Shown here: positions 1 through 46,077 of the stretch, in pieces
How positions within the stretch are numbered: position 1 is the stretch's first letter
Layout: each line of letters opens with the position of its first letter
Virus record (IMG/VR): IMGVR_UViG_3300030107_004688
Span: 1-46,077 of that record
Length of the DNA: 46,077 nucleotides
Strand: one strand, 5' to 3'
Source of the DNA: a virus
Translations under genes and position numbers: made by a program
Notes under the pieces: generated by a model
Databases searched by the model: none
What the model saw: only the letters and a program-made list of their open reading frames with translations
What the model was told of the DNA's origin: nothing

Positions 1-54
1 ACTCAAACAGAAGCTAATAACGCAGCCGTTGCGATGGCGATTGCACTTGGTTGA
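1..54 (+). CDS. 3' end of the gp17-like tail fibre gene (partial)
   Basis: The first 54 bases are in frame and identical to the last 18 codons of the tail fibre gene at 44160-45719, including the TGA stop. The rest of this copy lies off the left edge. With the repeated gene that follows, this shows that the window starts inside the tail-fibre region and that its right end runs back into the same place. It is a fragment only and carries no separate function. Confidence 0.9.
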   Translation, partial: TQTEANNAAVAMAIALG

Positions 55-373
55 TATTAAAGGATAATTATGGCAAACACGTTTAAAAATAAAACTTCAA
101 AAGGAGTAGGTACATCCTTAACTCAAATAGGGTCTTATGCTGTAGCTGCGGATACACAAACTACAGTTATTGGACTCTCAGTTTCTAATATAACTGGTAG
201 TTCTGTAGATGTAGATGTTCAGCTTTCCAGTAATGCTGGCTCAGATACTAATGATATAAGAATCGTCAAGGGTATACCTGTTCCATCAGGATCAACAGTT
301 GTTTTAATCGGAGGTGATCAAAAGCTCGTAATGGAAACTGGAAACTTATTAAAAATAAAATCATCAGCCGCAT
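1..373 (+). repeat. Left copy of the imperfect end repeat
   Basis: This stretch aligns to 45666-46077. The first 70 bases or so are identical, the middle has scattered mostly synonymous changes, and the right copy has an extra 39 bases (13 codons). The last part of the alignment is again almost identical. An imperfect terminal overlap of this kind is expected where an assembler closed a circular or terminally redundant genome across two strain variants. A real tandem duplication of the small gene is the alternative. Confidence 0.85.
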
Positions 374-7169: not shown

Positions 7170-7547
7170 ATGGCTTATAGCGAGAAAGTTTTGGAGCATT
7201 ATGAAAGACCAAAAAATATTGGTAGTATGGATAGTGGGAGTAAGTCTACTGGTACTGGTCTTGTGGGTGCTCCTGAATGCGGAGATGTTATGAAGCTCCA
7301 GATAGAAGTTAAGGACAATAAGATTGTAGATGCAAAATTTAAGACATTCGGATGTGGATCAGCAATAGCTTCTTCTTCTCTTGTTACCGAATGGGTAAAA
7401 GGTAAAACTCTAGAAGAAGCCCAAACTATCAAGAATACAGAAATTGTAGAAGAACTTTCACTTCCTCCAGTAAAGATACATTGTTCTGTACTAGCAGAGG
7501 ATGCAATTAAAGCAGCTATAAATAACTACAAAGAAAAATATGTGTAA
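7170..7547 (+). CDS. iscU: IscU-type iron-sulfur cluster scaffold
   Basis: 125 residues, full length and strikingly close to bacterial IscU from MAYSEKVLEHYERPKNIGS onward. All ligands are present: C37 and D39 in APECGDVMK, C62 in FGCGSAIASSS, and H104 with C105 in KIHCS. The HscA chaperone recognition motif LPPVK is intact at 98-102. The cellular protein accepts sulfur from IscS and iron, builds [2Fe-2S] clusters and hands them to apo-proteins. Here it starts immediately after the peptidase stop, with GGAG eight bases upstream, and is followed by a cysteine-rich minigene and the small terminase. No iscS, iscA or hscA accompanies it, so it would have to plug into the host machinery. Confidence 0.95.
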   Translation: MAYSEKVLEHYERPKNIGSMDSGSKSTGTGLVGAPECGDVMKLQIEVKDNKIVDAKFKTFGCGSAIASSSLVTEWVKGKTLEEAQTIKNTEIVEELSLPPVKIHCSVLAEDAIKAAINNYKEKYV

Positions 7548-7967: not shown

Positions 7968-9650
7968 ATGAAAAACAGAAAAGAACCTAAAAATCCACTT
8001 CTGGACTTTAGGAACTTTGTTTTTTTGGTTTGGGAACACTTAACTCTCCCTGAACCAACTCCTGTTCAATACGATATTGCTGACTATTTACAAAATGCTC
8101 CCAAGAGAGCAGTCATTGAAGCATTTCGTGGAGTTGGAAAAAGTTACATAACTTCTGCTTTCGTTTGCTGGAAGTTACTCCTTGATTCTGAAACTAAAGT
8201 CTTGGTTGTTTCAGCTTCTAAAGTCAGGTCCGATGACTTTTCAACCTTTACACAGAGATTGATAAATGAATTACCTATTCTTCACCACCTTAAATCACGA
8301 GAAGGACAGAGACAAAGCAAGGTAGCTTTCGATGTCGGTCCATGTCAAGCTAGTCACAGTCCCTCTGTTAAGTCAGTTGGGATTACAGGACAGTTGTCTG
8401 GATCTCGTGCAGATATAATTGTAGCTGATGACGTTGAAGTTCCAAATAACTCAATGACTCAGACTATGCGTGATAAACTTTCAGAAGCAGTTAAAGAATT
8501 TGATGCTGTACTAAAACCAGATGGCAGTATTGTCTATCTTGGTACACCTCAAACAGAAATGAGTCTTTATGAAACACTTCCTGAAAGAGGTTATGAAGTC
8601 AGAATCTGGCCCAGTAGATACCCAGACGAAAAACAAGTTCTTAGGTATTCCAATAAACTTAGTCCATTTATTCAAGATCGTCTTGATCGTGGCTATAATG
8701 TTGGAGATCCTACTGATCCATTACGCTTCGATGCCGAAGACCTATTGGAGCGAGAACTCTCCTACGGAAAATCTGGCTTCGCACTTCAATTCCAATTAGA
8801 TACATCACTCTCAGATGCAGATAAATATCCACTAAAACTATCTGATCTTATCATAATGGGTGTTGACTCTGATAAAGCTCCTGAGAAGCCTGTATGGACT
8901 AGAGATCCTAGAAATAAACTTACTGATCTCCCAAATGTAGGACTTCCAGGAGACTTCTTTTATTCACCAGAAACAAAACTAGGAGATTGGATTCAATATT
9001 CTGGTTCTGTTCTTTCTATAGATCCAAGCGGTAGAGGAAAAGATGAAACTGGATATGCAGTAGTTAAGATGTTGAATGGTTTTCTCTACGTTACTGAGTG
9101 TGGAGGACTTAGAGGAGGTTATAAGGATACTAACCTTAAATCTCTCTCAGTAATTGCTAAAAGAAATAATGTAAACCTCATCCTTATCGAGTCTAACTTT
9201 GGAGATGGGATGTTTATGGAACTCCTGAAACCAGTTCTCAGGAAAATTCACAATGTAACCATAGAGGAAATAAGAAGTAATGTCCAAAAAGAAAAGAGGA
9301 TTGTGGATACTCTTGAGCCTGTCATGAATCAACATAGACTTGTGATTGATCCAAAGGTTATTGAGAATGACTACAAGACAGTTCAGGAGTATCCTGTGGA
9401 ATCCCAAGCTCGATATATGCTTTTCCACCAGATGACAAGGATTACTAAGGACAAAGGTGCTTTGATCCATGACGATAGACTTGATGCTCTCCAAATGGCA
9501 GTCCAATACTGGGTAGATTTCATGGCAGCGGATGCTGAGATTGAGATACGAACACGAAAAGATGAACTTTTTGATATGGAAATTGAAAAGTTTATGAATG
9601 GTGTCTTGAATAATAATAAAAACATAGATTCTTCTCCTACTTGGATGTGA
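7968..9650 (+). CDS. terL: Large terminase subunit (T7 gp19-like)
   Basis: 560 residues, close to the T7 size. This is the ATPase-nuclease motor that cuts and packages DNA into the procapsid. The Walker A-like loop AFRGVGKSY is at 52-60, and Walker B ADIIVADDVE at 148-157. The RNase H-like nuclease acids are in SIDPSGRGKDETG (D352), LILIESNFGDG (E408) and HDDRLDALQMA near 515. The start ATG 7968 lacks a Shine-Dalgarno and is preceded by the AT-rich CTTAATTA leader shared with the capsid and gp11-like genes. In T7-type genomes this gene is close to the right end, which places the natural terminus just downstream. Confidence 0.95.
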   Translation: MKNRKEPKNPLLDFRNFVFLVWEHLTLPEPTPVQYDIADYLQNAPKRAVIEAFRGVGKSYITSAFVCWKLLLDSETKVLVVSASKVRSDDFSTFTQRLINELPILHHLKSREGQRQSKVAFDVGPCQASHSPSVKSVGITGQLSGSRADIIVADDVEVPNNSMTQTMRDKLSEAVKEFDAVLKPDGSIVYLGTPQTEMSLYETLPERGYEVRIWPSRYPDEKQVLRYSNKLSPFIQDRLDRGYNVGDPTDPLRFDAEDLLERELSYGKSGFALQFQLDTSLSDADKYPLKLSDLIIMGVDSDKAPEKPVWTRDPRNKLTDLPNVGLPGDFFYSPETKLGDWIQYSGSVLSIDPSGRGKDETGYAVVKMLNGFLYVTECGGLRGGYKDTNLKSLSVIAKRNNVNLILIESNFGDGMFMELLKPVLRKIHNVTIEEIRSNVQKEKRIVDTLEPVMNQHRLVIDPKVIENDYKTVQEYPVESQARYMLFHQMTRITKDKGALIHDDRLDALQMAVQYWVDFMAADAEIEIRTRKDELFDMEIEKFMNGVLNNNKNIDSSPTWM

Positions 9651-9676
9651 TTAAGTTAACATAATAAACAATTCTC

Positions 9677-9689
9677 CTACTCTAGATAT
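9677..9689 (+). promoter_or_regulatory. Candidate phage RNA polymerase promoter, copy A
   Basis: CTACTCTAGATAT occurs here, 26 bases after the large terminase stop, and again with all 13 bases at 17864; a 10-base version is at 26039. All three sites lie in intergenic gaps, as single-subunit polymerase promoters do. This copy is where T7 has its right-end promoter phiOR. GGG follows at 9690, a plausible start. The assignment is inferred from repetition and position. Confidence 0.6.
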
Positions 9690-9697
9690 GGGCTAGT

Positions 9698-9829
9698 TTG
9701 AAGTATATAGTACATACAAGACTCCGTTATAAGACTTCTGATGGATACAGAGGTGTTATAGTTGAGATAAAGGAGAAACCACCAGAAGAAAAGAAGAAAC
9801 CTAAATATTTTCAGAAAAATTCTGAGTAG
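9698..9829 (+). CDS. Possible 43-residue basic protein at the gp19.5 position
   Basis: From a TTG at 9698 the frame reads MKYIVHTRLRYKTSDGYRGV then a Lys/Glu/Pro-rich tail (EKPPEEKKKPKYFQKNSE). It has a coherent beta-like N-terminus and ends with TAG. There is no ATG or Shine-Dalgarno, and an in-frame stop lies shortly upstream. T7 has a small gene, 19.5, at the same place after the terminase and the phiOR promoter. The position and the protein-like composition support it moderately; the function is unknown. Confidence 0.45.
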   Translation: MKYIVHTRLRYKTSDGYRGVIVEIKEKPPEEKKKPKYFQKNSE

Positions 9830-9834
9830 GTGTA

Positions 9835-9850
9835 ATCGATAGTGATCGAT
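9835..9850 (+). other. ATCGAT inverted repeat
   Basis: Two ATCGAT copies flank AGTG and form a six-base stem. TTTTAC follows a few bases later. It lies right after the small gene at 9698 and could stop late transcription weakly or serve as a protein-binding dyad. Both readings are speculative. Confidence 0.4.
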
Positions 9851-9977
9851 GATTTTACCCCATTCAATATTGCACGAACCATTTTTAAAAATCTGCCATT
9901 TTTTTTAAATTCTGCACCTTGAAATTACAAAATCTCAGCACCTCTTGGAACACCTTTTAAAATTCTCAAAATAATCT

Positions 9978-10057
9978 TGATTTATTCTGATTTATTCTGA
10001 TTTGTTTTAAGGTGTTTTGATTCATTCTAATTCATTATGATTTGTTCTGAGATTTTG
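9978..10057. repeat. Eight tandem 10-bp phased units (TGATTTATTC type)
   Basis: Starting at 9978 the sequence reads as consecutive ten-base units: TGATTTATTC twice, TGATTTGTTT, TAAGGTGTTT, TGATTCATTC, TAATTCATTA, TGATTTGTTC, TGAGATTTTG. Most begin TGATT or TAATT, so the T-rich tracts recur once per helical turn. Phased T tracts bend DNA. The array lies in the large non-coding stretch between the terminase and the first early gene, where T7 has its terminal repeat and short repeat arrays. A packaging, terminal-processing or early-promoter role is inferred. Confidence 0.75.
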
Positions 10058-10078
10058 AGCTTGTTTTTGTGTTTTTTG

Positions 10079-10105
10079 TATCTATATGTTTTTTTGGTAT
10101 AGATA
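10079..10105. other. TATCTATA/TATAGATA dyad in the early leader
   Basis: Perfect eight-base inverted repeat with an 11-base T-rich spacer. It sits in a very AT-rich part of the early leader, where -10-like boxes are abundant. It could be an operator, a hairpin in RNA, or part of an early host-type promoter. A shorter AATTC-TTTT-GAATT dyad follows at 10131-10144. Nothing else was seen between 10106 and 10198. Confidence 0.45.
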
Positions 10106-10198
10106 TTGTTTATCTTATTTATACAAATTTAATTCTTTTGAATTGAATTTTTATTTGTAGCATTTGCAAGGGATTTGAGAATTGGCTCAAAATATCAC

Positions 10199-10227
10199 TT
10201 GACATGTTTTACAAACTTTAGTAGTTT
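10199..10227 (+). promoter_or_regulatory. Candidate host sigma70-type early promoter
   Basis: A perfect -35 box TTGACA at 10199-10204 is followed after 17 bases by TAGTTT, a weak -10 match (three of six). It lies about 60 bases upstream of the first early gene. T7-like phages use host RNA polymerase for this region, so a promoter here is expected. Other -10-like boxes are present upstream, and the real start may use one of them. Confidence 0.5.
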
Positions 10228-10277
10228 TAGAGCACCTCAGAAAATTGTTTTTGAGGCTTTCAAAATTAACTTTAAAT

Positions 10278-10294
10278 AAAAGAGGTAACAATGG
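10278..10294 (+). repeat. Repeated early-gene leader AAAGAGGTAACAATGGC, copy 1 of 3
   Basis: The same 17 bases, containing the ribosome-binding site GAGG, the spacer TAACA and the start codon with Gly/Ala-type second codon, recur at 10766-10782 and 11123-11139. Variants with GAGGATAAA precede the next two genes. Identical leaders on unrelated proteins suggest a shared strong early translation signal. Confidence 0.7.
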
Positions 10295-10674
10295 CTTATT
10301 CATTAGATTTCAAAACAAGTGAAGTTTGGAAAGGTGATAATCATATCTTAGGTTCAGATTACAGAGCGGAATGTTTAAATGTAAAAGCTTATCAAGCTTA
10401 TATGACAGACCCAACAAAACAGTCTGATTCATTTTTCAGAAAGCAAAACGGAAAATGTAGAATTTGGAGTAAAGAGGAAGTAAGAAAGGAAAATATAAAA
10501 AGAAAGCTTTTGAAGCCTACATTTAAAGAATATCTTTCAATCAAATGGAATGAGTTCAAAACAGAATGGAATAACGAACAACGTAATCCGTTTTGGTTTA
10601 AATGTTTATTTATTGGTTCTTGCTCAGTTTCAATTATTGCAAGCATCATGATGGTTTTATTTCCTAACATGTAA
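10291..10674 (+). CDS. First early protein, hypothetical, C-terminal membrane anchor
   Basis: 127 residues, basic, with one hydrophobic segment near the C-terminus (FKCLFIGSCSVSIIASIMMV). The body is rich in Lys, Trp and Tyr and carries five Cys. No family was recognised. It is the first gene after the early promoter region, has the GAGGTAACA leader and is followed by a strong terminator. This is where T7 places host-takeover functions such as gp0.3. A role in disarming the host is an inference from position only. Confidence 0.6.
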   Translation: MAYSLDFKTSEVWKGDNHILGSDYRAECLNVKAYQAYMTDPTKQSDSFFRKQNGKCRIWSKEEVRKENIKRKLLKPTFKEYLSIKWNEFKTEWNNEQRNPFWFKCLFIGSCSVSIIASIMMVLFPNM

Positions 10675-10708
10675 ATTTTTCACTGGTTCAGATTGAATCA
10701 GTTAATAT

Positions 10709-10751
10709 ATAGCCGTATAAGCTTCAGATTGGCTTGTACGGCTATTTTTTT
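10709..10751 (+). terminator. Rho-independent terminator after the first early gene
   Basis: A 14-base stem (ATAGCCGTATAAGC with GCTTGTACGGCTAT, one T-G wobble) with a nine-base loop is followed by seven T. This is a textbook intrinsic terminator in an otherwise AT-rich region. It separates the first early gene from the rest, and read-through or an internal promoter must supply the later early genes. Confidence 0.9.
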
Positions 10752-10765
10752 GTCTAATCTATACT

Positions 10766-10782
10766 AAAGAGGTAACAATGGC
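10766..10782 (+). repeat. Repeated early-gene leader, copy 2 of 3
   Basis: Identical to the leader at 10278. It lies 15 bases after the terminator's T-run and provides the ribosome-binding site and start of the gene at 10778. Confidence 0.7.
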
Positions 10783-11113
10783 TAAACTTTCAAGAGAACG
10801 CAAGCAAGAATTAATTAAGCTTTTAAAATCTTATTTCAAAAAAGATTCAACAGCATTTTGTAATTTAAAAAATGTTTCAAAAAATGGAGATTACAGAAAC
10901 ATCCAAATTTTATCATGTAAGAAAAACAGAATTTATAATTTATCTTATGCTGTTGCTGAATTATGCGGATTTACATTTAAAAGCAATACTAATTCTGTAG
11001 GTGTAAGAGGTGGTGGAATGGATATGGGATTTCATATAGTCAATACATTATCACATTATCTTTATTCTAATAAAGAACGAGGAGAATATTATATTAATTC
11101 ACAATGGATTTAA
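10778..11113 (+). CDS. Early protein with conserved GGGMDMGFHIV motif
   Basis: 111 residues. The C-terminal half carries RGGGMDMGFHIVNTLSHYLY, a motif I recognise from uncharacterised proteins in many tailed phages. It follows a beta-rich N-terminal half (NVSKNGDYRNIQILSCKKNR, IYNLSYAVAELCGF). The conserved combination suggests a small globular domain shared across phages, but its function is not known to me. Basic N-terminus, no membrane segment. It lies just downstream of the terminator and shares the 17-base leader of its neighbours. Confidence 0.6.
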   Translation: MAKLSRERKQELIKLLKSYFKKDSTAFCNLKNVSKNGDYRNIQILSCKKNRIYNLSYAVAELCGFTFKSNTNSVGVRGGGMDMGFHIVNTLSHYLYSNKERGEYYINSQWI

Positions 11114-11122
11114 TCTTAATCA

Positions 11123-11139
11123 AAAGAGGTAACAATGGC
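11123..11139 (+). repeat. Repeated early-gene leader, copy 3 of 3
   Basis: Identical to the leaders at 10278 and 10766. It provides the ribosome-binding site and start of the gene at 11135. Confidence 0.7.
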
Positions 11140-11521
11140 ACATTCAAACACTAAGGTCAAACAAACATCCAAAAGTTTCAGAATTTGGATTGAAGGTAAA
11201 AAGCTTATTGATTCAGGATTCAAACCAAATGCAAGATATAACATTGAATATTTGGTAAAAACAAAAACTATAATTCTTGAAATTGCAGAAAATGGTAAAA
11301 GAAAGGTGAGCAACTCAAAACGAAATGGAATTGATAGACCGATAATTGATCTTGAAAGCAAGAAAATTGGTATTTTATATGAGGAAGGAAAATTGCTTTT
11401 AGTATCTTATTTAAAGCATAAAATTATAATACAAGAAAAACAGGAAAATATATCTTTGCCACATCCAACTTTTACAATTCCAAAAAAGAAAAATATATTT
11501 CAAACTTTATTTGGAGTTTAA
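11135..11521 (+). CDS. Early protein, possibly SymE/AbrB-like
   Basis: 128 residues. Residues 14-75 (SFRIWIEGKKLIDSGFKPNA, then EYLVKTKTIILEI, KRKVS and RPIIDLES) resemble a small swapped-hairpin fold seen in SymE-like or AbrB-like proteins and in proteins linked to phage cytosine methylases. The remainder is beta-rich and basic, ending in an aromatic tail. It lies two kilobases upstream of the methyltransferase in the same early operon. DNA or RNA binding is plausible. The similarity is from memory of motif order only, so the call is tentative. Confidence 0.45.
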   Translation: MAHSNTKVKQTSKSFRIWIEGKKLIDSGFKPNARYNIEYLVKTKTIILEIAENGKRKVSNSKRNGIDRPIIDLESKKIGILYEEGKLLLVSYLKHKIIIQEKQENISLPHPTFTIPKKKNIFQTLFGV

Positions 11522-11543
11522 AATTTAATCAAAAGAGGATAAA

Positions 11544-11660
11544 ATGGGAAAATGTAAGCTATGCGGAACTAATAAAAGCGTAAAATACAAATTTAAAAAA
11601 GATGATTATTGTAATCGTTGTATAGTTCATATTTGGAAAATTAATAGAAAGAGAGGATAA
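11544..11660 (+). CDS. Small zinc-ribbon-like protein
   Basis: 38 residues: MGKCKLCGTNKSVKYKFKKD, DYCNRCIVH and a basic end. Two CXXC pairs (C4/C7 and C23/C26) make a minimal zinc ribbon. AAAAGAGGATAAA precedes the ATG, and the next gene begins one base after the stop. Small zinc-binding early proteins often bind nucleic acid or host polymerase, but no target is evident here. Confidence 0.6.
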   Translation: MGKCKLCGTNKSVKYKFKKDDYCNRCIVHIWKINRKRG

Positions 11661-11661
11661 A

Positions 11662-12438
11662 ATGGAATTACTTGGAACAAACTCAAATCCAAAACTAATG
11701 ACAGAACATTCAGCAGAATTTGAAAAGCTTTTAAATCAATTAAATAAGAAGTATTTTCAAATCAAATCAGAATTTAAGGGTACTATAACTGGAGGTGTTT
11801 CACTTGCACCAAATAAGCAAAACGGATTGAATGTTGATTTATGTGGAGGACATTCGACAAAAGCTTGTAGAAAGGGTTGCTTATTTGTTCAAGGTCGAGG
11901 CAGAATGAAGCCAGTAGAAAATGCAAGAATCAAAAAAGCTGTATTTTTCATAAAAGAAAATAAACAGTTTGTAAGTCAATTAATTACTGAATTAGCAAAA
12001 CTTGAAAGGAGAGCAAAAAAGAGAAATATTAAGCCATGTGTTAGATTAAATGTACTTTCTGACATTAAATGGGAAAATATCAAACATGATGGAAAAACAG
12101 TTTTTGAACTTTTTCCAAATATAGAATTTTACGATTATACAAAAAACTGGAAAAGGGATGTTTCAAATATTCCAAATTATACTCTGACTTATTCAAAATC
12201 AGAAGAGTATGAAATTAACCAAATTCCTGGAATGCTACAAGCTCAGAAAAACGTAGCTATGATTTTCAGGAATGAAATACCAAAAAGCTTTAGTATTGGA
12301 GAAAATAAAATGGAAGTAATTAATGGTGATGTTCATGATTTAAGATTCATGGACAAAAAAGGTGTAATCGTAGGATTAACTGCAAAGGGATCACTCAAAA
12401 AAGATAAAGATGTTGAGGGATTTGTATATGATAACTAA
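11662..12438 (+). CDS. Gp88-like phage protein (DUF7227-type)
   Basis: 258 residues. The order of motifs matches a family known as phage gene product 88: GGVSLAPNKQNGLNVDLCGG, KACRKGCLFVQGRGR, RLNVLSDIKWE, a FYDYTKNW element, and YTLTYSKSEEYE. Three cysteines (C61, C69, C73) cluster in the N-terminal third and look like metal or Fe-S ligands. The biochemical activity of the family is not established. Spacing of one base from the zinc-ribbon gene suggests coupling. A Cys-cluster enzyme together with phage IscU in one genome is noteworthy, though no link is shown. Confidence 0.65.
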   Translation: MELLGTNSNPKLMTEHSAEFEKLLNQLNKKYFQIKSEFKGTITGGVSLAPNKQNGLNVDLCGGHSTKACRKGCLFVQGRGRMKPVENARIKKAVFFIKENKQFVSQLITELAKLERRAKKRNIKPCVRLNVLSDIKWENIKHDGKTVFELFPNIEFYDYTKNWKRDVSNIPNYTLTYSKSEEYEINQIPGMLQAQKNVAMIFRNEIPKSFSIGENKMEVINGDVHDLRFMDKKGVIVGLTAKGSLKKDKDVEGFVYDN

Positions 12439-12460
12439 TTCCTGGAACCAGGATAACTAA
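12430..12460. repeat. GATAACTAA direct repeats around a TCCTGG/CCAGGA palindrome
   Basis: Nine-base direct repeats (12430-12438 and 12452-12460) flank TTCCTGGAACCAG, in which TCCTGG pairs with CCAGGA over two bases. The left repeat includes the stop of the gp88-like gene. The inverted core is too tight for a good RNA hairpin, which favours a DNA-binding site. Confidence 0.5.
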
Positions 12461-12475
12461 CATTAGGAGAACAAA

Positions 12476-12673
12476 ATGATTACTGAATATAACAAAATTA
12501 ATTCAAAGTTGGCTAGAGCTAACTCAGAATTTAAACATGAAAAAGTAGAAAATAAGTTTTGCCATAGAACAAGAAATAATGCATCTATGAAAAGTTTTAA
12601 AAAGGAGTTTAATAGAGCACAGAGAGCCTATGGTAAGTCTGTTGTTAGACTTGCTATGAATGGCGTAATTTAA
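12476..12673 (+). CDS. Hypothetical small basic protein
   Basis: 65 residues, basic, helical-looking (KKEFNRAQRAYGKSVVRLAM). AGGAGAACAAA precedes the ATG, a ribosome-binding cassette used by at least six genes here. No family was recognised. A nucleic-acid-binding role fits the charge but is not shown. Confidence 0.55.
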   Translation: MITEYNKINSKLARANSEFKHEKVENKFCHRTRNNASMKSFKKEFNRAQRAYGKSVVRLAMNGVI

Positions 12674-12693
12674 ACCTATAAGAGGAGAACAAA

Positions 12694-12909
12694 ATGGAAT
12701 GGAAAAATATCACTAAAGAAATAATAATTCAAGAAAGGATAGAATTTGGAAATGTCCGATACTATCCAATAAATGAGCTTGGAAAGAAATTTGCTCATCT
12801 GTTAGGAACTAAAACATTAACTATTGAAGCTTTAGATTTCATAGTTGAGGAACTTGGAATTACTGTAAATTTTAAACAAAGTGAATTAAAAAAATGGAGG
12901 ACATTATGA
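12694..12909 (+). CDS. Hypothetical early protein
   Basis: 71 residues, with a balanced charge and a FAHLLGTKTLTIEALDFIVE helix-rich centre. The leader AGGAGAACAAA is the same cassette as its neighbours. The stop overlaps the next start as ATGA. Function unknown. Confidence 0.55.
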   Translation: MEWKNITKEIIIQERIEFGNVRYYPINELGKKFAHLLGTKTLTIEALDFIVEELGITVNFKQSELKKWRTL

Positions 12910-13100
12910 AAAAAACATTGACAAATTCAAGAAAATTAAATAAGCTATTTAGTACAGCATCAGATGAAGAGGTCAAAACAGAAATGCCTTTAGGCTTTAA
13001 TGTAGTAATTGACATTAGAGGAAGTAGAGGAGAAGAGAAAGATAGACAACAAATGAGAATGTACTCAAGTCTAGATGAAAATTGGTCAGGACATCGATAA
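12906..13100 (+). CDS. Hypothetical small basic protein
   Basis: 64 residues from ATG 12906, chosen because TGGAGG lies six bases upstream and the start overlaps the previous stop. An ATG at 12894 would add four residues but lacks a ribosome-binding site. The middle (GFNVVIDIRGSRGEEKDRQQ) is strand then charged helix. No family was recognised. Confidence 0.5.
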   Translation: MKKTLTNSRKLNKLFSTASDEEVKTEMPLGFNVVIDIRGSRGEEKDRQQMRMYSSLDENWSGHR

Positions 13101-13110
13101 GGAGAACAAA

Positions 13111-13281
13111 ATGTATACAAATGAATTAAATGAAATTTGGTATGCGTTACATACTAATATCGAAGCTGAGGAGTATAAAAGATGGGATGATTTATGTACA
13201 GCTATGGCTTTCATTGAACAAGCTTTAGGACATGAAGATTTCCAAGCTGAAGACCCTATAGACCTAAATAAGGAGAACTAA
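13111..13281 (+). CDS. Hypothetical small acidic protein
   Basis: 56 residues from ATG 13111, which has the AGGAGAACAAA cassette; an upstream in-frame ATG at 13075 overlaps the previous gene and has no such signal. The protein is acidic and helical (MYTNELNEIWYALHTN, WDDLCTAMAFIEQALG). It ends one base before the methyltransferase start, so the two are probably co-translated. Function unknown. Confidence 0.55.
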   Translation: MYTNELNEIWYALHTNIEAEEYKRWDDLCTAMAFIEQALGHEDFQAEDPIDLNKEN

Positions 13282-14409
13282 ATGGAAACAATTAAATGGA
13301 GTAGCTTTGCAACTGGAATTGGTGCTCCAGATGAAGCAGTTAGAAATATGAATTGGGAATGTGTCGCATATTCAGAAATCGATGAGTACCCAAAGAAATA
13401 TTACAAAAAACGTAACCCTAAAACAGGAGAGGATTTAGATGACTTTAGCAAACTTACAGATGAAAGAATCAGAAACATTAGAGGACATCGTGTTGCAGTT
13501 GCATCATTGCCATGTCAAAGCTTCTCAATCTCTGGAAACAGGAAAGGTTTTGAAGATGATAGAGGAAACCTTTTCTTTGACTTCCTCAGAATTATCAGAA
13601 TTACAAGACCTGACTATTTGGTCATGGAAAATGTCAAAGGGCTTTGCAATCACGACAAAGGGAAAACTCTTGCCACGATTGAAGCTGAGTTGGAAAAATT
13701 GGGCTATCAGATCGAATGGTCTATCCTTAATAGCAAAGATTTCGGAGTCCCACAAAACAGAGAAAGAATATATCTCATTGGTAGACATTCTAGAACCAAA
13801 CCCAGAGGAGCATTTTTTCCTCTCAGAAAGGGTAACAAAGAAAATCCTGGGAGAGTCGGGCAAGATTTGTCATACTGTTTAGATGCAAATTATCATAAAG
13901 GAACAAATACAACTTTAAAGGGTAGAAGACAATTAATTCAAATCAACAAACCTAAACACTCAAATGATAGAGTATATGATCCTAAAGGTATTTCTCCTAC
14001 ATTAAACACTATGCAAGGAGGAAATAGGCAACCATTTATTCTAACAGAAAGGAGAACTGAAGAAGCAAAGAAAATAAGAAGAGAACATAAGGCAAAAACT
14101 GGTAAAGACTTTTCACCTAGAAGAGGTAAAGAGGTAGTACCAAGAAAAGATGGTCTTGTAGGAACTTTAACTACATCACCAACTATAGAACAAACATTAG
14201 TGGATGAGAATGCAAAGATAAGAAGACTTACTCCATTAGAATGTTGGAGACTTCAAGGGTTTCCAGATGAGTGTTACCATTTAGCTAATGAAATACTCTC
14301 AAATACAAGACAGTATAAGGCTTTAGGTAACGCAATTACAGTTCCAGTTTTTCGGGCTATTGCAGAAAGATTGGAGGAACTTATAAATCCAGGAAAGGAG
14401 GATAAATGA
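13282..14409 (+). CDS. DNA cytosine-5 methyltransferase
   Basis: 375 residues. The conserved motifs are in order: I FATGIGAP (9-16), IV PCQSFS with catalytic C78, VI ENVKGL (116-121), VIII QNRERIYLIG (158-167) and X ALGNAITVPV near the C-terminus. A variable target-recognition region lies between VIII and X. It uses S-adenosylmethionine to methylate cytosine in DNA. No partner restriction enzyme was seen, so protection against host restriction is the likely job. It lies in the early operon and ends with an ATGA overlap to a small membrane peptide. The recognition site cannot be read from the sequence. Confidence 0.93.
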   Translation: METIKWSSFATGIGAPDEAVRNMNWECVAYSEIDEYPKKYYKKRNPKTGEDLDDFSKLTDERIRNIRGHRVAVASLPCQSFSISGNRKGFEDDRGNLFFDFLRIIRITRPDYLVMENVKGLCNHDKGKTLATIEAELEKLGYQIEWSILNSKDFGVPQNRERIYLIGRHSRTKPRGAFFPLRKGNKENPGRVGQDLSYCLDANYHKGTNTTLKGRRQLIQINKPKHSNDRVYDPKGISPTLNTMQGGNRQPFILTERRTEEAKKIRREHKAKTGKDFSPRRGKEVVPRKDGLVGTLTTSPTIEQTLVDENAKIRRLTPLECWRLQGFPDECYHLANEILSNTRQYKALGNAITVPVFRAIAERLEELINPGKEDK

Positions 14410-14510
14410 TAGAATACTTAATTTGGAAGCATCTCATGTTAATTGTTTTTACATGGGTAACAGTAGCCCATTGGGGAGAACCTCATGGGTTTGAGTGGAT
14501 AACCTACTAA
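14406..14510 (+). CDS. 34-residue membrane peptide
   Basis: MIEYLIWKHLMLIVFTWVTV then a short aromatic end (AHWGEPHGFEWITY). One hydrophobic span covers roughly residues 4-21. The Shine-Dalgarno GGAGG lies ahead of the ATG, which overlaps the methyltransferase stop. A second micro-membrane gene follows at 14522. A role at the host membrane is possible; function unknown. Confidence 0.6.
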   Translation: MIEYLIWKHLMLIVFTWVTVAHWGEPHGFEWITY

Positions 14511-14521
14511 TGGAGGTTATC

Positions 14522-14620
14522 ATGAGAACACTAGGAATTAGGGTGATGGTCACCTTAATGTTGTACAGTTACATTTCATTTTTTACGCAATGGAATGTAT
14601 TTTTAATTAATCTATTTTAG
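14522..14620 (+). CDS. 32-residue membrane peptide
   Basis: MRTLGIRVMVTLMLYSYISF followed by FTQWNVFLINLF. The whole chain is hydrophobic apart from two N-terminal Arg. GGAGG is eight bases upstream. It ends within the ribosome-binding site of the next gene. Tandem membrane micropeptides after a methyltransferase are unusual; exclusion or host membrane functions are possible. Confidence 0.6.
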   Translation: MRTLGIRVMVTLMLYSYISFFTQWNVFLINLF

Positions 14621-14629
14621 GAGAACAAA

Positions 14630-14890
14630 ATGAAAGTTAAATTCATGGTAGAAGGAAAAGCAATAGAAGTTCAAGAAGAACTTGTAAAATACTTTGTAGA
14701 TTCTAAATACCTCAGATCATCTTTGCGTAGGATTCCATTTTCCCAAGAGAACTTGGAAACTGCAAAGGCATTTGCAAAGATCATCTATAAGAATAGACCT
14801 TTGCGTGTACGTTGGAGAGGTACTAGGAAGCACCATCCAGACCACACAATTAAGTCTGAAGCTACTCATTTTGATGTATACGTTAGGTAG
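14630..14890 (+). CDS. Hypothetical early protein
   Basis: 86 residues, basic. An N-terminal beta element (MKVKFMVEGKAIEVQEELVK) precedes a helix and a basic patch (RPLRVRWRGTRKHHPDH). AGGAGAACAAA cassette. No family was recognised; RNA or DNA contact is possible from charge. Confidence 0.55.
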   Translation: MKVKFMVEGKAIEVQEELVKYFVDSKYLRSSLRRIPFSQENLETAKAFAKIIYKNRPLRVRWRGTRKHHPDHTIKSEATHFDVYVR

Positions 14891-14891
14891 C

Positions 14892-15140
14892 ATGGGCAAG
14901 GGTATTAAAAATAGAGGAACTAGGATTCACAAAGTCAAAACTAAATACAACCGAAAAACGGAGGATAATGTGAGTGTATTTTATTGCAACTCTTGTGATC
15001 AGCTTGTAGATTCAGATGAAGCTCCTAGTTTCGTCTATTTCTCAAATGATCGTACTTGGAAATGTGAGAACTGTCTAGAAAAAGATGGAGAACTTAACCT
15101 TTTAGAAGGAGATTCTTCATGGCTCAACGATGGTTTATAA
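14892..15140 (+). CDS. Small zinc-ribbon protein
   Basis: 82 residues from ATG 14892, or 56 from GTG 14970, which has a much better ribosome-binding site (GGAGG five bases upstream). Two CXXC pairs, FYCNSC and WKCENC, form a zinc ribbon. The first 26 residues in the longer form are very basic. The C-terminus is acidic (DGELNLLEGDSSWLNDGL). The 3' end overlaps the next gene by 22 bases. A nucleic-acid or polymerase partner is likely, but unknown. Confidence 0.6.
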   Translation: MGKGIKNRGTRIHKVKTKYNRKTEDNVSVFYCNSCDQLVDSDEAPSFVYFSNDRTWKCENCLEKDGELNLLEGDSSWLNDGL

Positions 15141-15349
15141 TGTTACCTGATATTTTCCACTTCTTCACAATATGGGGTTTTGGTGTACTGACAGGATTTT
15201 TTATATGTGTTATGTTTGTACTACTATATTGTTGGGGAGGTGGAGAAATCATGATTAAAATGGTTAATGCTAAAGATGCACAAAAATATCTCAGAGGGGA
15301 AGTATCCAATCTAGAAAAGGAATCTGACTGTAAATCAGAGGTCGTATGA
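15119..15349 (+). CDS. Small membrane protein overlapping a tRNA gene
   Basis: 76 residues. A hydrophobic stretch at about 11-40 (FHFFTIWGFGVLTGFFICVM, then FVLLYC) spans the membrane, and the rest is soluble. GAAGGAG precedes the start. The last 18 codons or so lie inside the tRNA-Tyr gene that begins at 15296, so the C-terminus (GEVSNLEKESDCKSEVV) is encoded by tRNA sequence. The protein may have been extended into the tRNA, or the tRNA inserted. Function unknown. Confidence 0.55.
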   Translation: MAQRWFIMLPDIFHFFTIWGFGVLTGFFICVMFVLLYCWGGGEIMIKMVNAKDAQKYLRGEVSNLEKESDCKSEVV

Positions 15350-15381
15350 CTTAGTGAGTGCAAATCTCACCTTCCTCACCA
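15296..15381 (+). tRNA. tRNA-Tyr (anticodon GUA), class II, CCA encoded
   Basis: The acceptor stem GGGGAAG pairs with CTTCCTC and is followed by A and encoded CCA. A three-base D stem (TCC/GGA), anticodon stem TCTGA/TCAGA with loop CTGTAAA, variable-arm stem GTC/GAC and T stem GTGAG/CTCAC are all intact. The layout matches bacterial tRNA-Tyr, including the long variable arm. The loops are unusual: the D loop lacks the GG pair (it has AG), and the T loop is TGCAAAT, with G for T55. It overlaps the preceding membrane-protein gene by 54 bases and ends 21 bases before the RNA polymerase start. Confidence 0.9.
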
Positions 15382-15402
15382 AACCTTTAAAAAGGAGGAA
15401 TT

Positions 15403-17850
15403 TTGAAATCAGAAAACATATTTGAAATCCAGAAAAGCTTAGAAGAAGAAATGGTTTATACTGGAATTGAAAAGTTTCAGAAGCAAGTAAGAGATGCTAA
15501 ACGTAAAGGTTCAGAATCTATTACTCTTCATGGAATCTTACTGATGAAAAGGACAGTAACTACTCTCAGTAAAGCTATTCACACTCATATAACTGAGGAA
15601 GTAGCAAAACCAGGAAGAATGAAATCAGTAAGTCCTTTCCTGGCAATGCTTGATAATGATGTAGCATCTTTTATTTCTCTCAGAGCTTTAATGGATGGAA
15701 TATCTCATTCTCAGAAACTTATGAATCTATCCCATCAGATAGGACAGGCATTATCTGATCAGGTACGATTCAGTATGTGGGAGGATAAGGACAAGGATTA
15801 CTTCCAAATGTTAGTGAAAAAGATAGGAAAAATATCTGCTTCCAGACATTACAGAAGATATGGATTAATCCGTACTGCATCCTATAAAATGGGAGAAGAA
15901 ATACCAGTTTGGACTCAGTTAGAACGAACTAAGGTAGGACAACTTATGATTGATCTGATCATTCGATCCACAGGATTAATCAAACTAGGTTCTACTAGAA
16001 CTACAGGAAAAAAGTATTCCTCATATACTATCGTTCCAACTCAGGAAACCTTAGATATGATTCAAGATATAATTAATCAAGGAGAATTAATGTCTCCTGC
16101 ATATCTACCAATGGTTACAACTCCTAAGAATTGGACTAACCCTAACAATGGAGGTTATTTAAGTCACAGATTACCATTCATTAAGGAAACTTATAAGAAT
16201 GTCAAGAATGATATTCCATTTCATAATATGGATATGGAATTTGAATGTGTAAATTCTCTTCAAAATACCAAGTGGAAGATAAACACAAGAGTTCTAGAGG
16301 TAATGAAGGAAGCATGGGATCAAGGTAGAATTATAGGCTCAATGCCTGATCGTAATGAGCTTGATCTTCCTGCAAGAGTAGTTCCGAAAGACCTCAAGAA
16401 AAAAGATATGGATGAGGAAACAAAACTAAAGTTAAAAGGTTGGAAGGTAAAAGCTACCAAAGTATACGAAGAAAATATTAGAAGAAAGTCTCAACTCTTA
16501 CAATTTATGAGAACTCTTAATTTAGCTAATAAATTCAAGGACTTTGAGCAGATTTATTTTCCGTATCAAGCTGACTTTAGAGGAAGAAAATATACTGTAT
16601 CTTCTTTCCTTACTCCTCAAGGTACAGAATACGCAAAATCTCTCCTGACATTCGGAGAAGGTTTACCAATAGAGAATCAGGAACAAAAAGATTGGCTTGC
16701 TATTCATGGTGCAAACTGTGCAGGAGTAGACAAAGTTTCTTTTTCTGAAAGAATCCAATGGGTCTTGGATAATGAGGAGCATATTATCAAATCTGCGGAA
16801 CTTGGATTGGATTATGATTGGTGGACACAATTTGATGATGCTTGGCAGTTCTTTGCATTCTGCTCAGAATGGGCTGTATTGAAAAGAAAAGGTCTAGGGG
16901 TACTCAGCTATCTCCCGATAGCTTTAGATGGCTCTAACAATGGTTTACAGCATTATTCAGCTATGTTGAGATGTCCTATCGGAGGTAAAGCAACAAACTT
17001 AACAAAAGAATCATCTCCACAGGACATTTACCAGGAAGTTGCAGATGTAGTATTTCGGGAAACCAAAAAACTAGCTTCTTTGGATGATCCCATAGCAAAA
17101 GTATGGCTTGAATCTGGTCTTATAAATCGTAAGATGACAAAAAGACCAGTAATGGTTGTTCCTTATGGTGGAACTAGGTTTAGTGCAATGGTTTATGTTG
17201 AAGAATATGTAGAAGATCAATTCAGGAAAGGAGAAAAACTCAGAATCCCTGAGAATGAATCTCTATCTAAGTACATAAACTGGATTACTACCTTAGTTTG
17301 GGATGCCATAGGAGAAGTTGTAGTTTCTGCAAGAGAAGCTATGACTTGGATAAGAGATGTAAGTTCTGAGCTTTCCAAAAAAGGTTATCCTGTAATTTGG
17401 AAAACTCCAACTGGACTTTATATCTACCAACATTACAAGGCTTTTAAATGGAGACAAATAAACACTACCATTGATGGTAAGCTCCTCAAGCCTGTAATTT
17501 ATGAAGAGGATGGTAAAAAGATAGATGTACTCAGGTCAGTAAATGGATCAGCACCTAACTTTGTACATTCTCTGGATGCCTCAGCACTAACCCTAACTGT
17601 GCATCTATGTAATAAGGAGGAAATAAGTAGTTATGCAATGATCCATGACAGTTATGGAACTCATGCAAAAAATACTCCTAAGATGGCAAAGCTTCTAAGA
17701 GAAGCATTCGTAGACATTTATAAGAACAATGATGTCTTGGATGACTTTTATAAAGCTGCTTTGGAAGTATTGGATGAAGTTCCTGAACCTCCTAAGATGG
17801 GAAATTTAAATATTCATGAGGTGTTAAGATCACCTTATTTTTTCTGTTAA
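15403..17850 (+). CDS. T7-like single-subunit DNA-dependent RNA polymerase
   Basis: 815 residues. The catalytic residues are all visible and correspond to T7: D509 in LPIALDGSNNGLQHYSAM (T7 D537), K580 and Y588 in KRPVMVVPYGG (K631, Y639), and D749 in MIHDSYGT (D812). It transcribes the late phage genes from its own promoters. The start is TTG at 15403, chosen because AAGGAGG lies just upstream and no ATG is nearby. It is shorter than T7 gp1 (883), mainly in the N-terminal region. The tRNA-Tyr just upstream may help define the mRNA 5' end when it is processed. Confidence 0.97.
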   Translation: MKSENIFEIQKSLEEEMVYTGIEKFQKQVRDAKRKGSESITLHGILLMKRTVTTLSKAIHTHITEEVAKPGRMKSVSPFLAMLDNDVASFISLRALMDGISHSQKLMNLSHQIGQALSDQVRFSMWEDKDKDYFQMLVKKIGKISASRHYRRYGLIRTASYKMGEEIPVWTQLERTKVGQLMIDLIIRSTGLIKLGSTRTTGKKYSSYTIVPTQETLDMIQDIINQGELMSPAYLPMVTTPKNWTNPNNGGYLSHRLPFIKETYKNVKNDIPFHNMDMEFECVNSLQNTKWKINTRVLEVMKEAWDQGRIIGSMPDRNELDLPARVVPKDLKKKDMDEETKLKLKGWKVKATKVYEENIRRKSQLLQFMRTLNLANKFKDFEQIYFPYQADFRGRKYTVSSFLTPQGTEYAKSLLTFGEGLPIENQEQKDWLAIHGANCAGVDKVSFSERIQWVLDNEEHIIKSAELGLDYDWWTQFDDAWQFFAFCSEWAVLKRKGLGVLSYLPIALDGSNNGLQHYSAMLRCPIGGKATNLTKESSPQDIYQEVADVVFRETKKLASLDDPIAKVWLESGLINRKMTKRPVMVVPYGGTRFSAMVYVEEYVEDQFRKGEKLRIPENESLSKYINWITTLVWDAIGEVVVSAREAMTWIRDVSSELSKKGYPVIWKTPTGLYIYQHYKAFKWRQINTTIDGKLLKPVIYEEDGKKIDVLRSVNGSAPNFVHSLDASALTLTVHLCNKEEISSYAMIHDSYGTHAKNTPKMAKLLREAFVDIYKNNDVLDDFYKAALEVLDEVPEPPKMGNLNIHEVLRSPYFFC

Positions 17851-44159: not shown

Positions 44160-45719
44160 ATGCCAGACTTAGCAAGACGAGGACCATTTAGTTATGATAG
44201 TCTAAGTAGAACAAGTGGTGATTACACCTTAACTAATTCTAAGTTTAATGCTGATAATGGTGAGATCTTAGAAGTCATCGTAAATGGTGTAAAGATAGAA
44301 GGAGATGGTTCTGTAGCAAATGGAACGGATGCTGCAGCTAAAGATCCTGCACATGGTTTCTATGTAGACAGTCTTACTTCTCCTACAAAAATAACACTAG
44401 TTTCTAATCCCGGTTCAGGAACAATAAAGATCTATAGACTCTCTAATCGTACTTCAGCTTCAGTAGACTTTGCTCCCGGATCTGTAATCAGAGAACAAGA
44501 CTTAGATAACAGTACCAACCAGACTCTTCACGTTGCTCAGGAAGCGATTGATATAGCTCTTAATGGTGTTGTACTTGATAATGATGATAAATGGAATGCA
44601 AGTAGTAAAGTAGTTAAGAGTGTTGCTGATGGTGTTGCAGATAACGATGCAGTAAATAAAGGACAATTAACTGCTACAGAAGTAACTACATTAGCTTATA
44701 GAAATACAACTAATGACTATAAACTAGAAGCAAAGGATTGGGCACAATTAATTACTTCTCAAGTAAAGGCTTATTCTGATGGATCAGTAACAGGAAGTTT
44801 TCTTGAGGATTCTGCAAAGAACTGGGCTTCAGGAATAACATCAGCTGCACCTTCTGCTGGTTCTGCTAAAGAATGGGCTATTGGTGGAGAAGGTACTGTA
44901 GGTACAGCCGTTGCAGGAGGAGAATATTCTGCTAAAAAACATGCACAAGATGCATCTACATCTGCAACAGCCGCTTCAGCATCAGAGACAGCCGCAGCAG
45001 CTAGTGAAGCCTCTGCGAATGCTTCTGCCAATGCAGTAGCAAGTGTTATAGATAATTTCTATGATAAGTACTTAGGAGCAATGGCAGATGATGCCACTCA
45101 AGGTACTAATCCTACACCTACAGGAACTTGGATTAAGAATTCATCTTCTATTACAGTATCAGCTAATACAAATATAAAGGTAGGACAAGTTGTAACAGGA
45201 ACAGGAATTCCGGCAGGAGCAAATGTATTATCAATAGACGGAACTACAGTAGTTATTTCAGATAATATGGATGCCGCTGGAACTGGTGTAAGTCTTACAT
45301 TTACTGGTTATGGTGTATATGGTACATTTAATGGTACTAAAGATGGTCCTGCTACTGATAATGACAATGGAGCACTAGCAGATGGAATGTTGTACTTTAA
45401 TACAACTGATGATGTAATGATGGTTTATGATACCACATCTAGTAAGTGGAAACAGTTACAACCTACTACATCAGAAATGACAGCTATTCAGACATGTCAT
45501 ACTAATATTAGTAGTATTAATGACTTTATAGATAAATATAGGATTGCTAGTTCTGCACCGGGATCTGATAATGACGATGGTGACTTATACTATAATACTT
45601 CAACGAACCAACTTAATGTTTACGATGGTTCTAGTTGGTCAGCTATTGGTCTTACACAGGCTCAAACTCAAACAGAAGCTAATAACGCAGCCGTTGCGAT
45701 GGCGATTGCACTTGGTTGA
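44160..45719 (+). CDS. Tail fibre protein (T7 gp17-like N-terminal domain)
   Basis: 519 residues. The first 160 residues (RRGPFSYDSLSRTSGDYTLT, VIREQDLDNSTNQTLHVAQE) match the phage T7 tail-fibre N-terminal domain that binds the tail. A collagen-like or Ala/Ser-rich stalk follows (ASTSATAASASETAAAASEA), then two similar Thr/Gly-rich beta modules ending LGLT-type strands (YDTTSSKWKQLQPT; YNTSTNQLNVYDGSSWSAIG). The last repeats are like pre-trimerisation repeats in other fibres. Its end recurs at the left edge of the window, followed by variant small genes. Confidence 0.88.
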   Translation: MPDLARRGPFSYDSLSRTSGDYTLTNSKFNADNGEILEVIVNGVKIEGDGSVANGTDAAAKDPAHGFYVDSLTSPTKITLVSNPGSGTIKIYRLSNRTSASVDFAPGSVIREQDLDNSTNQTLHVAQEAIDIALNGVVLDNDDKWNASSKVVKSVADGVADNDAVNKGQLTATEVTTLAYRNTTNDYKLEAKDWAQLITSQVKAYSDGSVTGSFLEDSAKNWASGITSAAPSAGSAKEWAIGGEGTVGTAVAGGEYSAKKHAQDASTSATAASASETAAAASEASANASANAVASVIDNFYDKYLGAMADDATQGTNPTPTGTWIKNSSSITVSANTNIKVGQVVTGTGIPAGANVLSIDGTTVVISDNMDAAGTGVSLTFTGYGVYGTFNGTKDGPATDNDNGALADGMLYFNTTDDVMMVYDTTSSKWKQLQPTTSEMTAIQTCHTNISSINDFIDKYRIASSAPGSDNDDGDLYYNTSTNQLNVYDGSSWSAIGLTQAQTQTEANNAAVAMAIALG

Positions 45720-46077
45720 TATTAAAGGATAATTATGGCAAATACGTTTAAAAATAAAATTTCAAAAGGAGTAGGAACATCTTTTTTCCATATTGGTGCT
45801 GCTAATCCTATTTCAGGTGGAGGATCCCAAACTGGAGCTTATACTGTAGGTGCAGAAACACAAACTACAGTTATTGGACTTTCAGTTTCTAATGTAACTG
45901 GTAGTTCTGTAGATGTAGATGTTCAGCTTTCTAGTGCTGCTGGTTCAGAAACTAATGATGTAAGAATTGTTAAGGGTATACCTGTTCCATCAGGATCAAC
46001 AGTTGTTTTAATCGGAGGTGACCAAAAGCTCGTAATGGAAACTGGAAACTTATTAAAAATAAAATCATCAGCCGCAT
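45666..46077 (+). repeat. Right copy of the imperfect end repeat
   Basis: Aligns to 1-373, with 39 extra bases within the small gene and scattered substitutions. The first 70 bases, covering the fibre 3' end and spacer, are identical. It ends at the position homologous to base 373, so both copies stop abruptly at the edge, as expected when an assembly graph is cut at a variable node. Confidence 0.85.
45735..46077 (+). CDS. Small tail-associated protein, variant B (partial)
   Basis: 114 complete codons and the first base of the next are present before the edge. It is the allele or paralogue of the gene at 70-414. Residues 1-14 and the C-terminal half match; residues 17-40 (FFHIGAANPISGGGSQTGAY and onwards) replace LTQIGSYAV and carry a 13-residue insertion with a Gly-Gly-Gly-Ser loop. 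Differences downstream are mainly synonymous. Variation is thus focused on one exposed loop, as in a host-interaction or immune-recognition surface. The true 3' end lies outside the window. Confidence 0.85.
   Translation, partial: MANTFKNKISKGVGTSFFHIGAANPISGGGSQTGAYTVGAETQTTVIGLSVSNVTGSSVDVDVQLSSAAGSETNDVRIVKGIPVPSGSTVVLIGGDQKLVMETGNLLKIKSSAA

What the first reader, a model, noticed from the sequence alone, without database searches (positions are those of the whole stretch)
15296..15381. tRNA-Tyr overlapping a membrane gene and abutting the RNA polymerase gene
Seen: a full class II tRNA with encoded CCA overlaps the 3' end of a gene by 54 bases and stops 21 bases from the RNA polymerase start, next to its ribosome-binding site. 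Its tertiary-contact bases are odd (AG for GG in the D loop, G for T55). Inference: RNase P and 3' processing of the tRNA would cut the early transcript and create the 5' end of the polymerase mRNA, coupling tRNA release to polymerase expression. Alternatively, the element is a decoy or a former attachment site.
Basis: partly seen in the sequence, partly recalled or inferred. Interest (0 to 1): 0.75.

Follow-up and report, generated by a model that had tools for sequence, protein, structure and literature searches.

The report
Working phage tRNA-Tyr, accidentally beside polymerase
A T7-like virus carries one genuine tyrosine tRNA gene that related viruses swap among themselves and keep just ahead of their RNA polymerase region; its contact with the polymerase gene in this virus comes from a recent gene loss and is most likely not a dedicated switch.

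Summary
It is a functional-looking tRNA: 19 distinct relatives keep 99.6% of stem pairs, with both-side changes in 8 pairs. The 'odd' bases are not decay: A18/G55 is a coupled alternative to G18/U55. In 188 distinct tRNA-Tyr sequences every G55 goes with AG, and T55 nearly always with GG. In 28 related viral records the same tRNA-Tyr lies 851-2101 nt upstream of the phage RNAP, never adjacent. Identical copies sit in phages whose RNAPs are only 42-58% alike, so it is an exchanged cassette held in the pre-RNAP region. The contact with RNAP is unique to this window: a 1.1-kb methyltransferase gene is missing, with the breakpoint in the Shine-Dalgarno sequence. Coupling of tRNA processing to RNAP expression is therefore not a conserved mechanism, although here excising the tRNA would set the RNAP mRNA 5' end. 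Decoy and attachment-site readings are contradicted. Best function: extra tRNA-Tyr early in infection, perhaps against host tRNA-Tyr depletion. New member of a known kind; moderate interest.

The parts
15296..15381 (+). tRNA-Tyr(GTA), class II, encoded CCA (15379-15381), discriminator A73 (15378)
   Evidence: ARAGORN; Rfam 46.5 bits; covariation
15313..15314 (+). D-loop A18-G19 (usual: G18-G19)
   Evidence: invariant in the tRNA clade; linked to G55
15330..15332 (+). anticodon GTA in an ordinary CTGTAAA anticodon loop
   Evidence: invariant loop
15359..15365 (+). T-loop TGCAAAT with G55 at 15360 (usual: T55)
   Evidence: clade-wide
15119..15349 (+). small hydrophobic (membrane-type) ORF, 76 aa, whose last 17 codons and stop lie in the tRNA
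   Evidence: same ORF overlaps the tRNA in L003-L005, but sits directly before RNAP and ends without a tRNA in L006, L008 and L018
15382..15402 (+). 21-nt spacer with Shine-Dalgarno AAGGAGGA (15392-15399)
   Evidence: the deletion breakpoint maps to 15391-15399
15403..17850 (+). T7-type single-subunit RNA polymerase, 815 aa, TTG start (ATG in the relatives read)
13282..14409 (+). C5-cytosine methyltransferase upstream of the tRNA; about 44% identical to the different MTase that relatives carry between tRNA and RNAP

Best explanation
15296-15381 is a functional phage tRNA-Tyr in the early region of an uncultured T7-like (autographivirus-type) phage. It belongs to a tRNA-Tyr lineage exchanged between related phages and kept 0.9-2.1 kb upstream of RNAP. 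It is most likely co-transcribed with the early genes, excised by host RNase P and 3' nucleases, and used as ordinary tRNA-Tyr whose elbow is held by A18-G55 instead of G18-U55 (inferred from covariation; no structure). It most likely keeps tyrosine decoding going when host tRNA-Tyr becomes limiting early in infection, for instance when a host defence destroys it (inferred by analogy). Its contact with RNAP here is a by-product of losing the methyltransferase gene between the two, with the breakpoint in the Shine-Dalgarno sequence. RNAP mRNA made from the early transcript then probably starts just after the tRNA in this phage alone, without evidence of selection for that arrangement.
For: tRNA real. 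Stem covariation: 99.6% of cells paired, 31 both-side cells against 9.6 in shuffles. A18/G55 coupling: 69 of 69 G55 tRNA-Tyr have AG; of 119 T55, 114 show GG in the D-loop window and 4 of the other 5 show it just outside the scored positions. Over 1,339 phage and bacterial tRNAs with T or G at 55: T55 with GG 1255, without 7; G55 without GG 71, with 6 (four of the tRNA-Tyr read GGAG). Conserved pre-RNAP slot: 28 records, gap 851-2101 nt, median 1299, same strand, RNAP 41-93% identical to the window's. Exchange: one identical 86-nt tRNA in seven records whose RNAPs are as little as 42-44% identical. Adjacency by loss: window 14406-15399 matches L003 3874-4866 (94%), window 15391-19000 matches L003 5988-9593 (91%), the 1.1-kb MTase between is absent, and the two blocks overlap in AAAGGAGGA; L002 matches at 97.9% from 15391 on and has the MTase. 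Counter-defence precedent: T5/SP15 tRNA-Tyr rescues phage from retron-Eco7, which degrades host tRNA-Tyr (PMC11555353).
Against: No expression data. The host is unknown, so neither host tRNA-Tyr supply nor a tRNA-Tyr-cutting defence could be tested. Several relatives lack the tRNA (for example the 43-44 kb records behind L011 and L017), so it is not essential. The junction rests on one metagenomic contig.
Confidence: 0.7

Rival explanations
1. tRNA punctuation of the polymerase gene: tRNA excision creates the RNAP mRNA 5' end and thereby sets RNAP level or timing, and this is what the arrangement is for.
For: Only 21 nt separate CCA and start codon, so little room for a separate promoter. In thermodynamic folding the tRNA 3' strand CTTCCTC can pair with the RNAP Shine-Dalgarno when upstream RNA is attached, and the cloverleaf wins once the 5' end is at 15296. 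The start codon has become TTG while the relatives read use ATG.
Against: Unique to this window. In relatives the same tRNA precedes the Shine-Dalgarno sequences of unrelated genes at similar short spacing, so the spacing is generic. The anti-Shine-Dalgarno strand is lost in the clade members whose acceptor ends CTTGCCC. Energy differences are only 0-5 kcal/mol, and the Shine-Dalgarno stays largely paired even in the processed RNA.
Confidence: 0.12
2. Plain translation supply: the tRNA tops up Tyr decoding for phage genes, with no defence involved.
For: It is a complete tRNA with an ordinary anticodon loop and reads both Tyr codons.
Against: Tyr is 3.5% of early, 4.0% of middle and 3.5% of late codons, so there is no late enrichment, and phage genes prefer TAT (TAC 20-27%). 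Supply alone does not explain why one isoacceptor is repeatedly exchanged and kept early. Host unknown, so not excluded.
Confidence: 0.3
3. Attachment site or its remnant, as proposed for the tRNA-Leu beside the integrase in temperate T7-like phages LUZ100 and pelagiphages (PMC10134795).
For: Same genomic slot upstream of RNAP; a tRNA-less relative (L017) has an integrase at that place.
Against: No PF00589 integrase in the window or in any tested tRNA-bearing relative; the one relative with an integrase lacks the tRNA. Compensatory changes span the 5' and 3' halves, which an att core would not need. The GTGCAA T-loop in tRNA-Tyr matched only 38 stretches in 84,980 genomes, mostly Patescibacteria.
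Confidence: 0.04
4. Decoy or degenerate tRNA.
For: Non-consensus 18 and 55 bases.
Against: Those bases are coupled and shared with the chromosomal tRNA-Tyr of Patescibacteria; identity-type features (G1-C72, A73, GTA, long variable arm) are intact and the stems covary.
Confidence: 0.04

Closest known systems
Phage T5 / SP15 tRNA-Tyr (PMC11555353)
   Same: phage-encoded tRNA-Tyr(GTA); proposed use: replace host tRNA-Tyr
   Different: there one gene of a large tRNA-rich region with a strong own promoter; here a single gene inside the early region, A18/G55 type, no defence tested
tRNA-Leu near the integrase in LUZ100 and temperate pelagiphages (PMC10134795)
   Same: tRNA just upstream of RNAP in T7-like phages
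   Different: there beside an integrase (on the opposite strand in LUZ100); here same strand as the genes, no integrase, tRNA-Tyr, functional covariation
Bacterial tRNA-mRNA operons such as E. coli thrU-tyrU-glyT-thrT-tufB, and mitochondrial tRNA punctuation (own knowledge)
   Same: a tRNA upstream of an mRNA on one transcript; excision gives the mRNA a new 5' end
   Different: here the neighbour gene changes from phage to phage
RNase III sites before T7 gene 1 (own knowledge)
   Same: RNA cut near the start of the RNAP gene in an early polycistronic transcript
   Different: different enzyme and element; in relatives the cut would lie 0.9-2.1 kb away

Membership tests
tRNA (Rfam RF00005), tRNA-Tyr | cloverleaf over the family gathering score | tested here: met
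   46.5 vs 29 bits
tRNA (Rfam RF00005), tRNA-Tyr | GTA anticodon, long variable arm, G1-C72, A73, CCA end | tested here: met
tRNA (Rfam RF00005), tRNA-Tyr | stems preserved by compensatory change | tested here: met
   8 of 24 pairs with both-side changes, 99.6% of cells paired
tRNA (Rfam RF00005), tRNA-Tyr | G18-G19 with U55-C56 elbow contacts (usual, not universal) | tested here: not met
   A18-G19 with G55-C56; a coupled natural variant also found in chromosomal tRNA-Tyr, so it marks a variant rather than excluding it from the family
tRNA (Rfam RF00005), tRNA-Tyr | mature, charged and used in translation | not testable with these tools
   needs RNA from infected cells
tRNA-type phage attachment site | integrase gene nearby | tested here: not met
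   no PF00589 in the window or tested tRNA-bearing relatives
tRNA-type phage attachment site | identity with a host tRNA 3' half | tested here: inconclusive
   GTGCAA-type tRNA-Tyr in genome contigs is nearly confined to Patescibacteria, all clearly different sequences, but the host is unknown
tRNA-punctuated mRNA (RNAP) | tRNA-gene adjacency conserved in relatives | tested here: not met
   0 of 28 relatives; no other contig
tRNA-punctuated mRNA (RNAP) | RNAP mRNA 5' end at the tRNA 3' end | not testable with these tools
   needs 5'-end mapping
Anti-defence phage tRNA | restores infection under a tRNA-cutting defence | not testable with these tools
   host and its defences unknown

The most novel reading that the evidence does not exclude
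In this phage lineage RNAP expression has become dependent on tRNA maturation: until RNase P frees the tRNA, its 3' strand (CTTCCTC) masks the RNAP Shine-Dalgarno, and excision exposes it and sets the mRNA 5' end, with the TTG start tuning the output.
Probability: 0.08. Interest if true: 0.6.

Novelty: new member of a known kind. Interest (0 to 1): 0.33.

Why it matters
It shows that a striking gene contact can be the scar of a gene loss, and separates that from what is conserved: one tRNA isoacceptor, tRNA-Tyr, exchanged between T7-like phages and repeatedly kept in the pre-RNAP region. That fits the current idea that phage tRNAs answer host tRNA depletion and makes it testable. The G55-A18 linkage gives a clean covariation case for the tRNA elbow in phages and Patescibacteria.

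Tried and rejected
Attachment site: integrase search, genome scan for the T-loop type, search for a tRNA fragment in integrase-bearing L017 (only 9-11 nt chance matches). Decoy: covariation. Polymerase coupling: comparative gap table, junction scan (none), folding with and without upstream RNA (ambiguous, not conserved). Codon-demand reading: Tyr share flat across early, middle and late genes. Promoter scan 9600-15600: fewer sigma-70-like sites than the shuffle mean, uninformative. A search for a repeated phage promoter motif found only ribosome-binding-site cassettes. Host identification: nearest cultured RNAP is only 38% identical; terminase is about 60% identical to Roseobacter phages and LUZ100; no host call made. 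Literature search for an A18/G55 pair found nothing explicit.

Full report
OBSERVATION. The tRNA is real and at the stated place. ARAGORN reports one tRNA in 46,077 bases, tRNA-Tyr(gta) at 15296-15381. Rfam scores it 46.5 bits against a gathering score of 29. The ORF 15119-15349 ends 54 bases inside it, the RNAP ORF starts with TTG at 15403, and the Shine-Dalgarno AAGGAGGA lies at 15392-15399. The RNAP is T7-type. The window is a virus record, with 34% G+C. Its core gene order is that of T7-like phages: terminase, then many small ORFs, then RNAP, single-strand binding protein, endonuclease, primase/helicase, DNA polymerase, exonuclease and head genes. Its nearest cultured relatives are distant: RNAP at most 38% identical.

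IT IS A FUNCTIONAL-LOOKING tRNA. A pattern scan of 2.9 million viral contigs for tRNA-Tyr with the GTGCAANTC T-arm gave 75 stretches. About 30 of these form the window's own tRNA lineage. In 19 distinct sequences 99.6% of paired cells are standard pairs; 8 pairs change on both sides (shuffle mean 4.3) and 31 cells do (shuffle mean 9.6); sliding the partners destroys the signal. Changes occur in acceptor, D, anticodon, variable and T stems, so both halves of the molecule are under structural selection.

THE ODD LOOP BASES ARE A COUPLED PAIR. Among 188 distinct tRNA-Tyr sequences from the fetched loci, every one of 69 with G55 carries AG in the D-loop (four read GGAG). Of 119 with T55, 114 show GG in the scored D-loop window; of the other five, four show GG just outside it. 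Over distinct tRNAs of all kinds, G55 goes with absence of GG in 71 of 77, and T55 with GG in 1,255 of 1,262. The G55 type also occurs in chromosomal tRNA-Tyr of Patescibacteria and a few other genomes. The simplest reading is that A18-G55 replaces the G18-Psi55 contact (described in PMC4810234). This is inferred from covariation only; I found no paper that states it. The D-loop classification is by a simple text rule, checked by eye for the exceptions. The G55 and T55 sets were fetched by patterns that fix position 55 but leave the D-loop free, so the D-loop association is not built in.

POSITION IN RELATIVES. In 28 other records that hold both this tRNA lineage and RNAP, the tRNA is on the same strand 851-2101 nt upstream of RNAP (median 1299); in the window it is 21 nt. 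RNAP in these records is 41-93% identical to the window's. One identical 86-nt tRNA occurs in seven records whose RNAPs fall as low as 42-44% identity to each other. That indicates horizontal exchange into the same slot. The genes directly after the tRNA differ between phages, and mostly start 16-30 nt after the CCA behind a generic GGAG-type cassette. The same cassette type precedes many other genes of the window, so closeness to a ribosome-binding site is not special to RNAP. Several relatives have no tRNA at all, including two near-full-length records of 43-44 kb.

HOW THE CONTACT AROSE. The window and L003 are collinear here except for one gene. Window 14406-15399 matches L003 3874-4866 (94%), and window 15391-19000 matches L003 5988-9593 (91%). 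Missing from the window is the C5-methyltransferase gene of L003 (Pfam DNA_methylase). The two blocks overlap in AAAGGAGGA, the Shine-Dalgarno. L002, 97.9% identical over 3,611 bp starting exactly at 15391, has the methyltransferase before RNAP. L006, L008 and L018 also have the methyltransferase between tRNA and RNAP. So loss in the window's lineage is the parsimonious direction. The window has another C5-methyltransferase further upstream (13282-14409). No other viral contig shows tRNA directly before RNAP. The 54-base overlap with the small hydrophobic ORF is older: L003-L005 share it. In those phages excising the tRNA truncates that ORF's mRNA, so one transcript can give either the tRNA or the full-length protein (inference).

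FUNCTION. Shown: intact conserved tRNA, exchanged, kept in the region before RNAP. Inferred: early transcription by host RNA polymerase, RNase P excision, use in translation. Tyr codons are 3.5, 4.0 and 3.5% of early, middle and late codons, so there is no sign of special late demand. T5-like phages use a tRNA-Tyr against retron-Eco7, which depletes host tRNA-Tyr (PMC11555353); the ordinary anticodon loop here gives no hint of a cleavage-resistant anticodon. I put replacement of depleted host tRNA-Tyr somewhat ahead of plain supply, and mark both as untested.

COUPLING TO RNAP. In this phage an early transcript reaching RNAP contains the tRNA, so maturation would leave an RNAP mRNA starting near 15382. 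Folding shows that the tRNA 3' strand can cover the Shine-Dalgarno when upstream RNA is present, but the energy differences are small, the processed leader is itself mostly paired at the Shine-Dalgarno, and the complementary strand is not conserved. I leave this as an unexcluded minor possibility.

LIMITS. The junction rests on one metagenomic contig. The host is unknown. No expression data exist here. The relatives were sampled by a tRNA pattern and by RNAP peptides, so more distant arrangements may be missed.

Noticed in passing
window 15403-15405: RNAP starts with TTG in the window while the relatives read (such as L002-L005) start with ATG at the same place; the change lies next to the deletion breakpoint.
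   Followed up: partly
L022 4125-4152, L023 10135-10211 (-), L076 70-97, L083, L066, L058, L032, L026, L073, L089, L093: Three types of stem-loop element lie upstream of the tRNA-Tyr in relatives; exact scans of 2.9 million viral contigs found them 12 of 12 times only beside this tRNA lineage, across divergent RNAPs. In the first type (GTAGRGTAG...CTAYYCTAC) the stem shows compensatory change. No Rfam family in the six loci scanned; one type overlaps a coding region.
   Followed up: partly
L017 (record G009 9069-9527): A relative with 71% identical RNAP carries a tyrosine integrase upstream of RNAP, where others carry the tRNA-Tyr, and has no tRNA.
   Followed up: partly
L074 2312-3077: Same tRNA-Tyr lineage on a 61.6-kb contig, followed directly by a serine-recombinase (Resolvase) gene.
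   Followed up: partly
window 7170-7547: NifU/IscU-like Fe-S scaffold gene just upstream of the terminase gene, about 70% identical to copies in phage C48C1 and Acinetobacter phage MD-2021a.
   Followed up: partly
window 1-373 and 45665-46077: The record's ends repeat each other (1-116 and 124-373 against 45665-45780 and 45828-46077) with an indel, so it is probably a complete circular assembly or carries a tail-region repeat.
   Followed up: no
window 10709-10745: Strong terminator-like hairpin (15 pairs, T tail) between the first two early ORFs.
   Followed up: no
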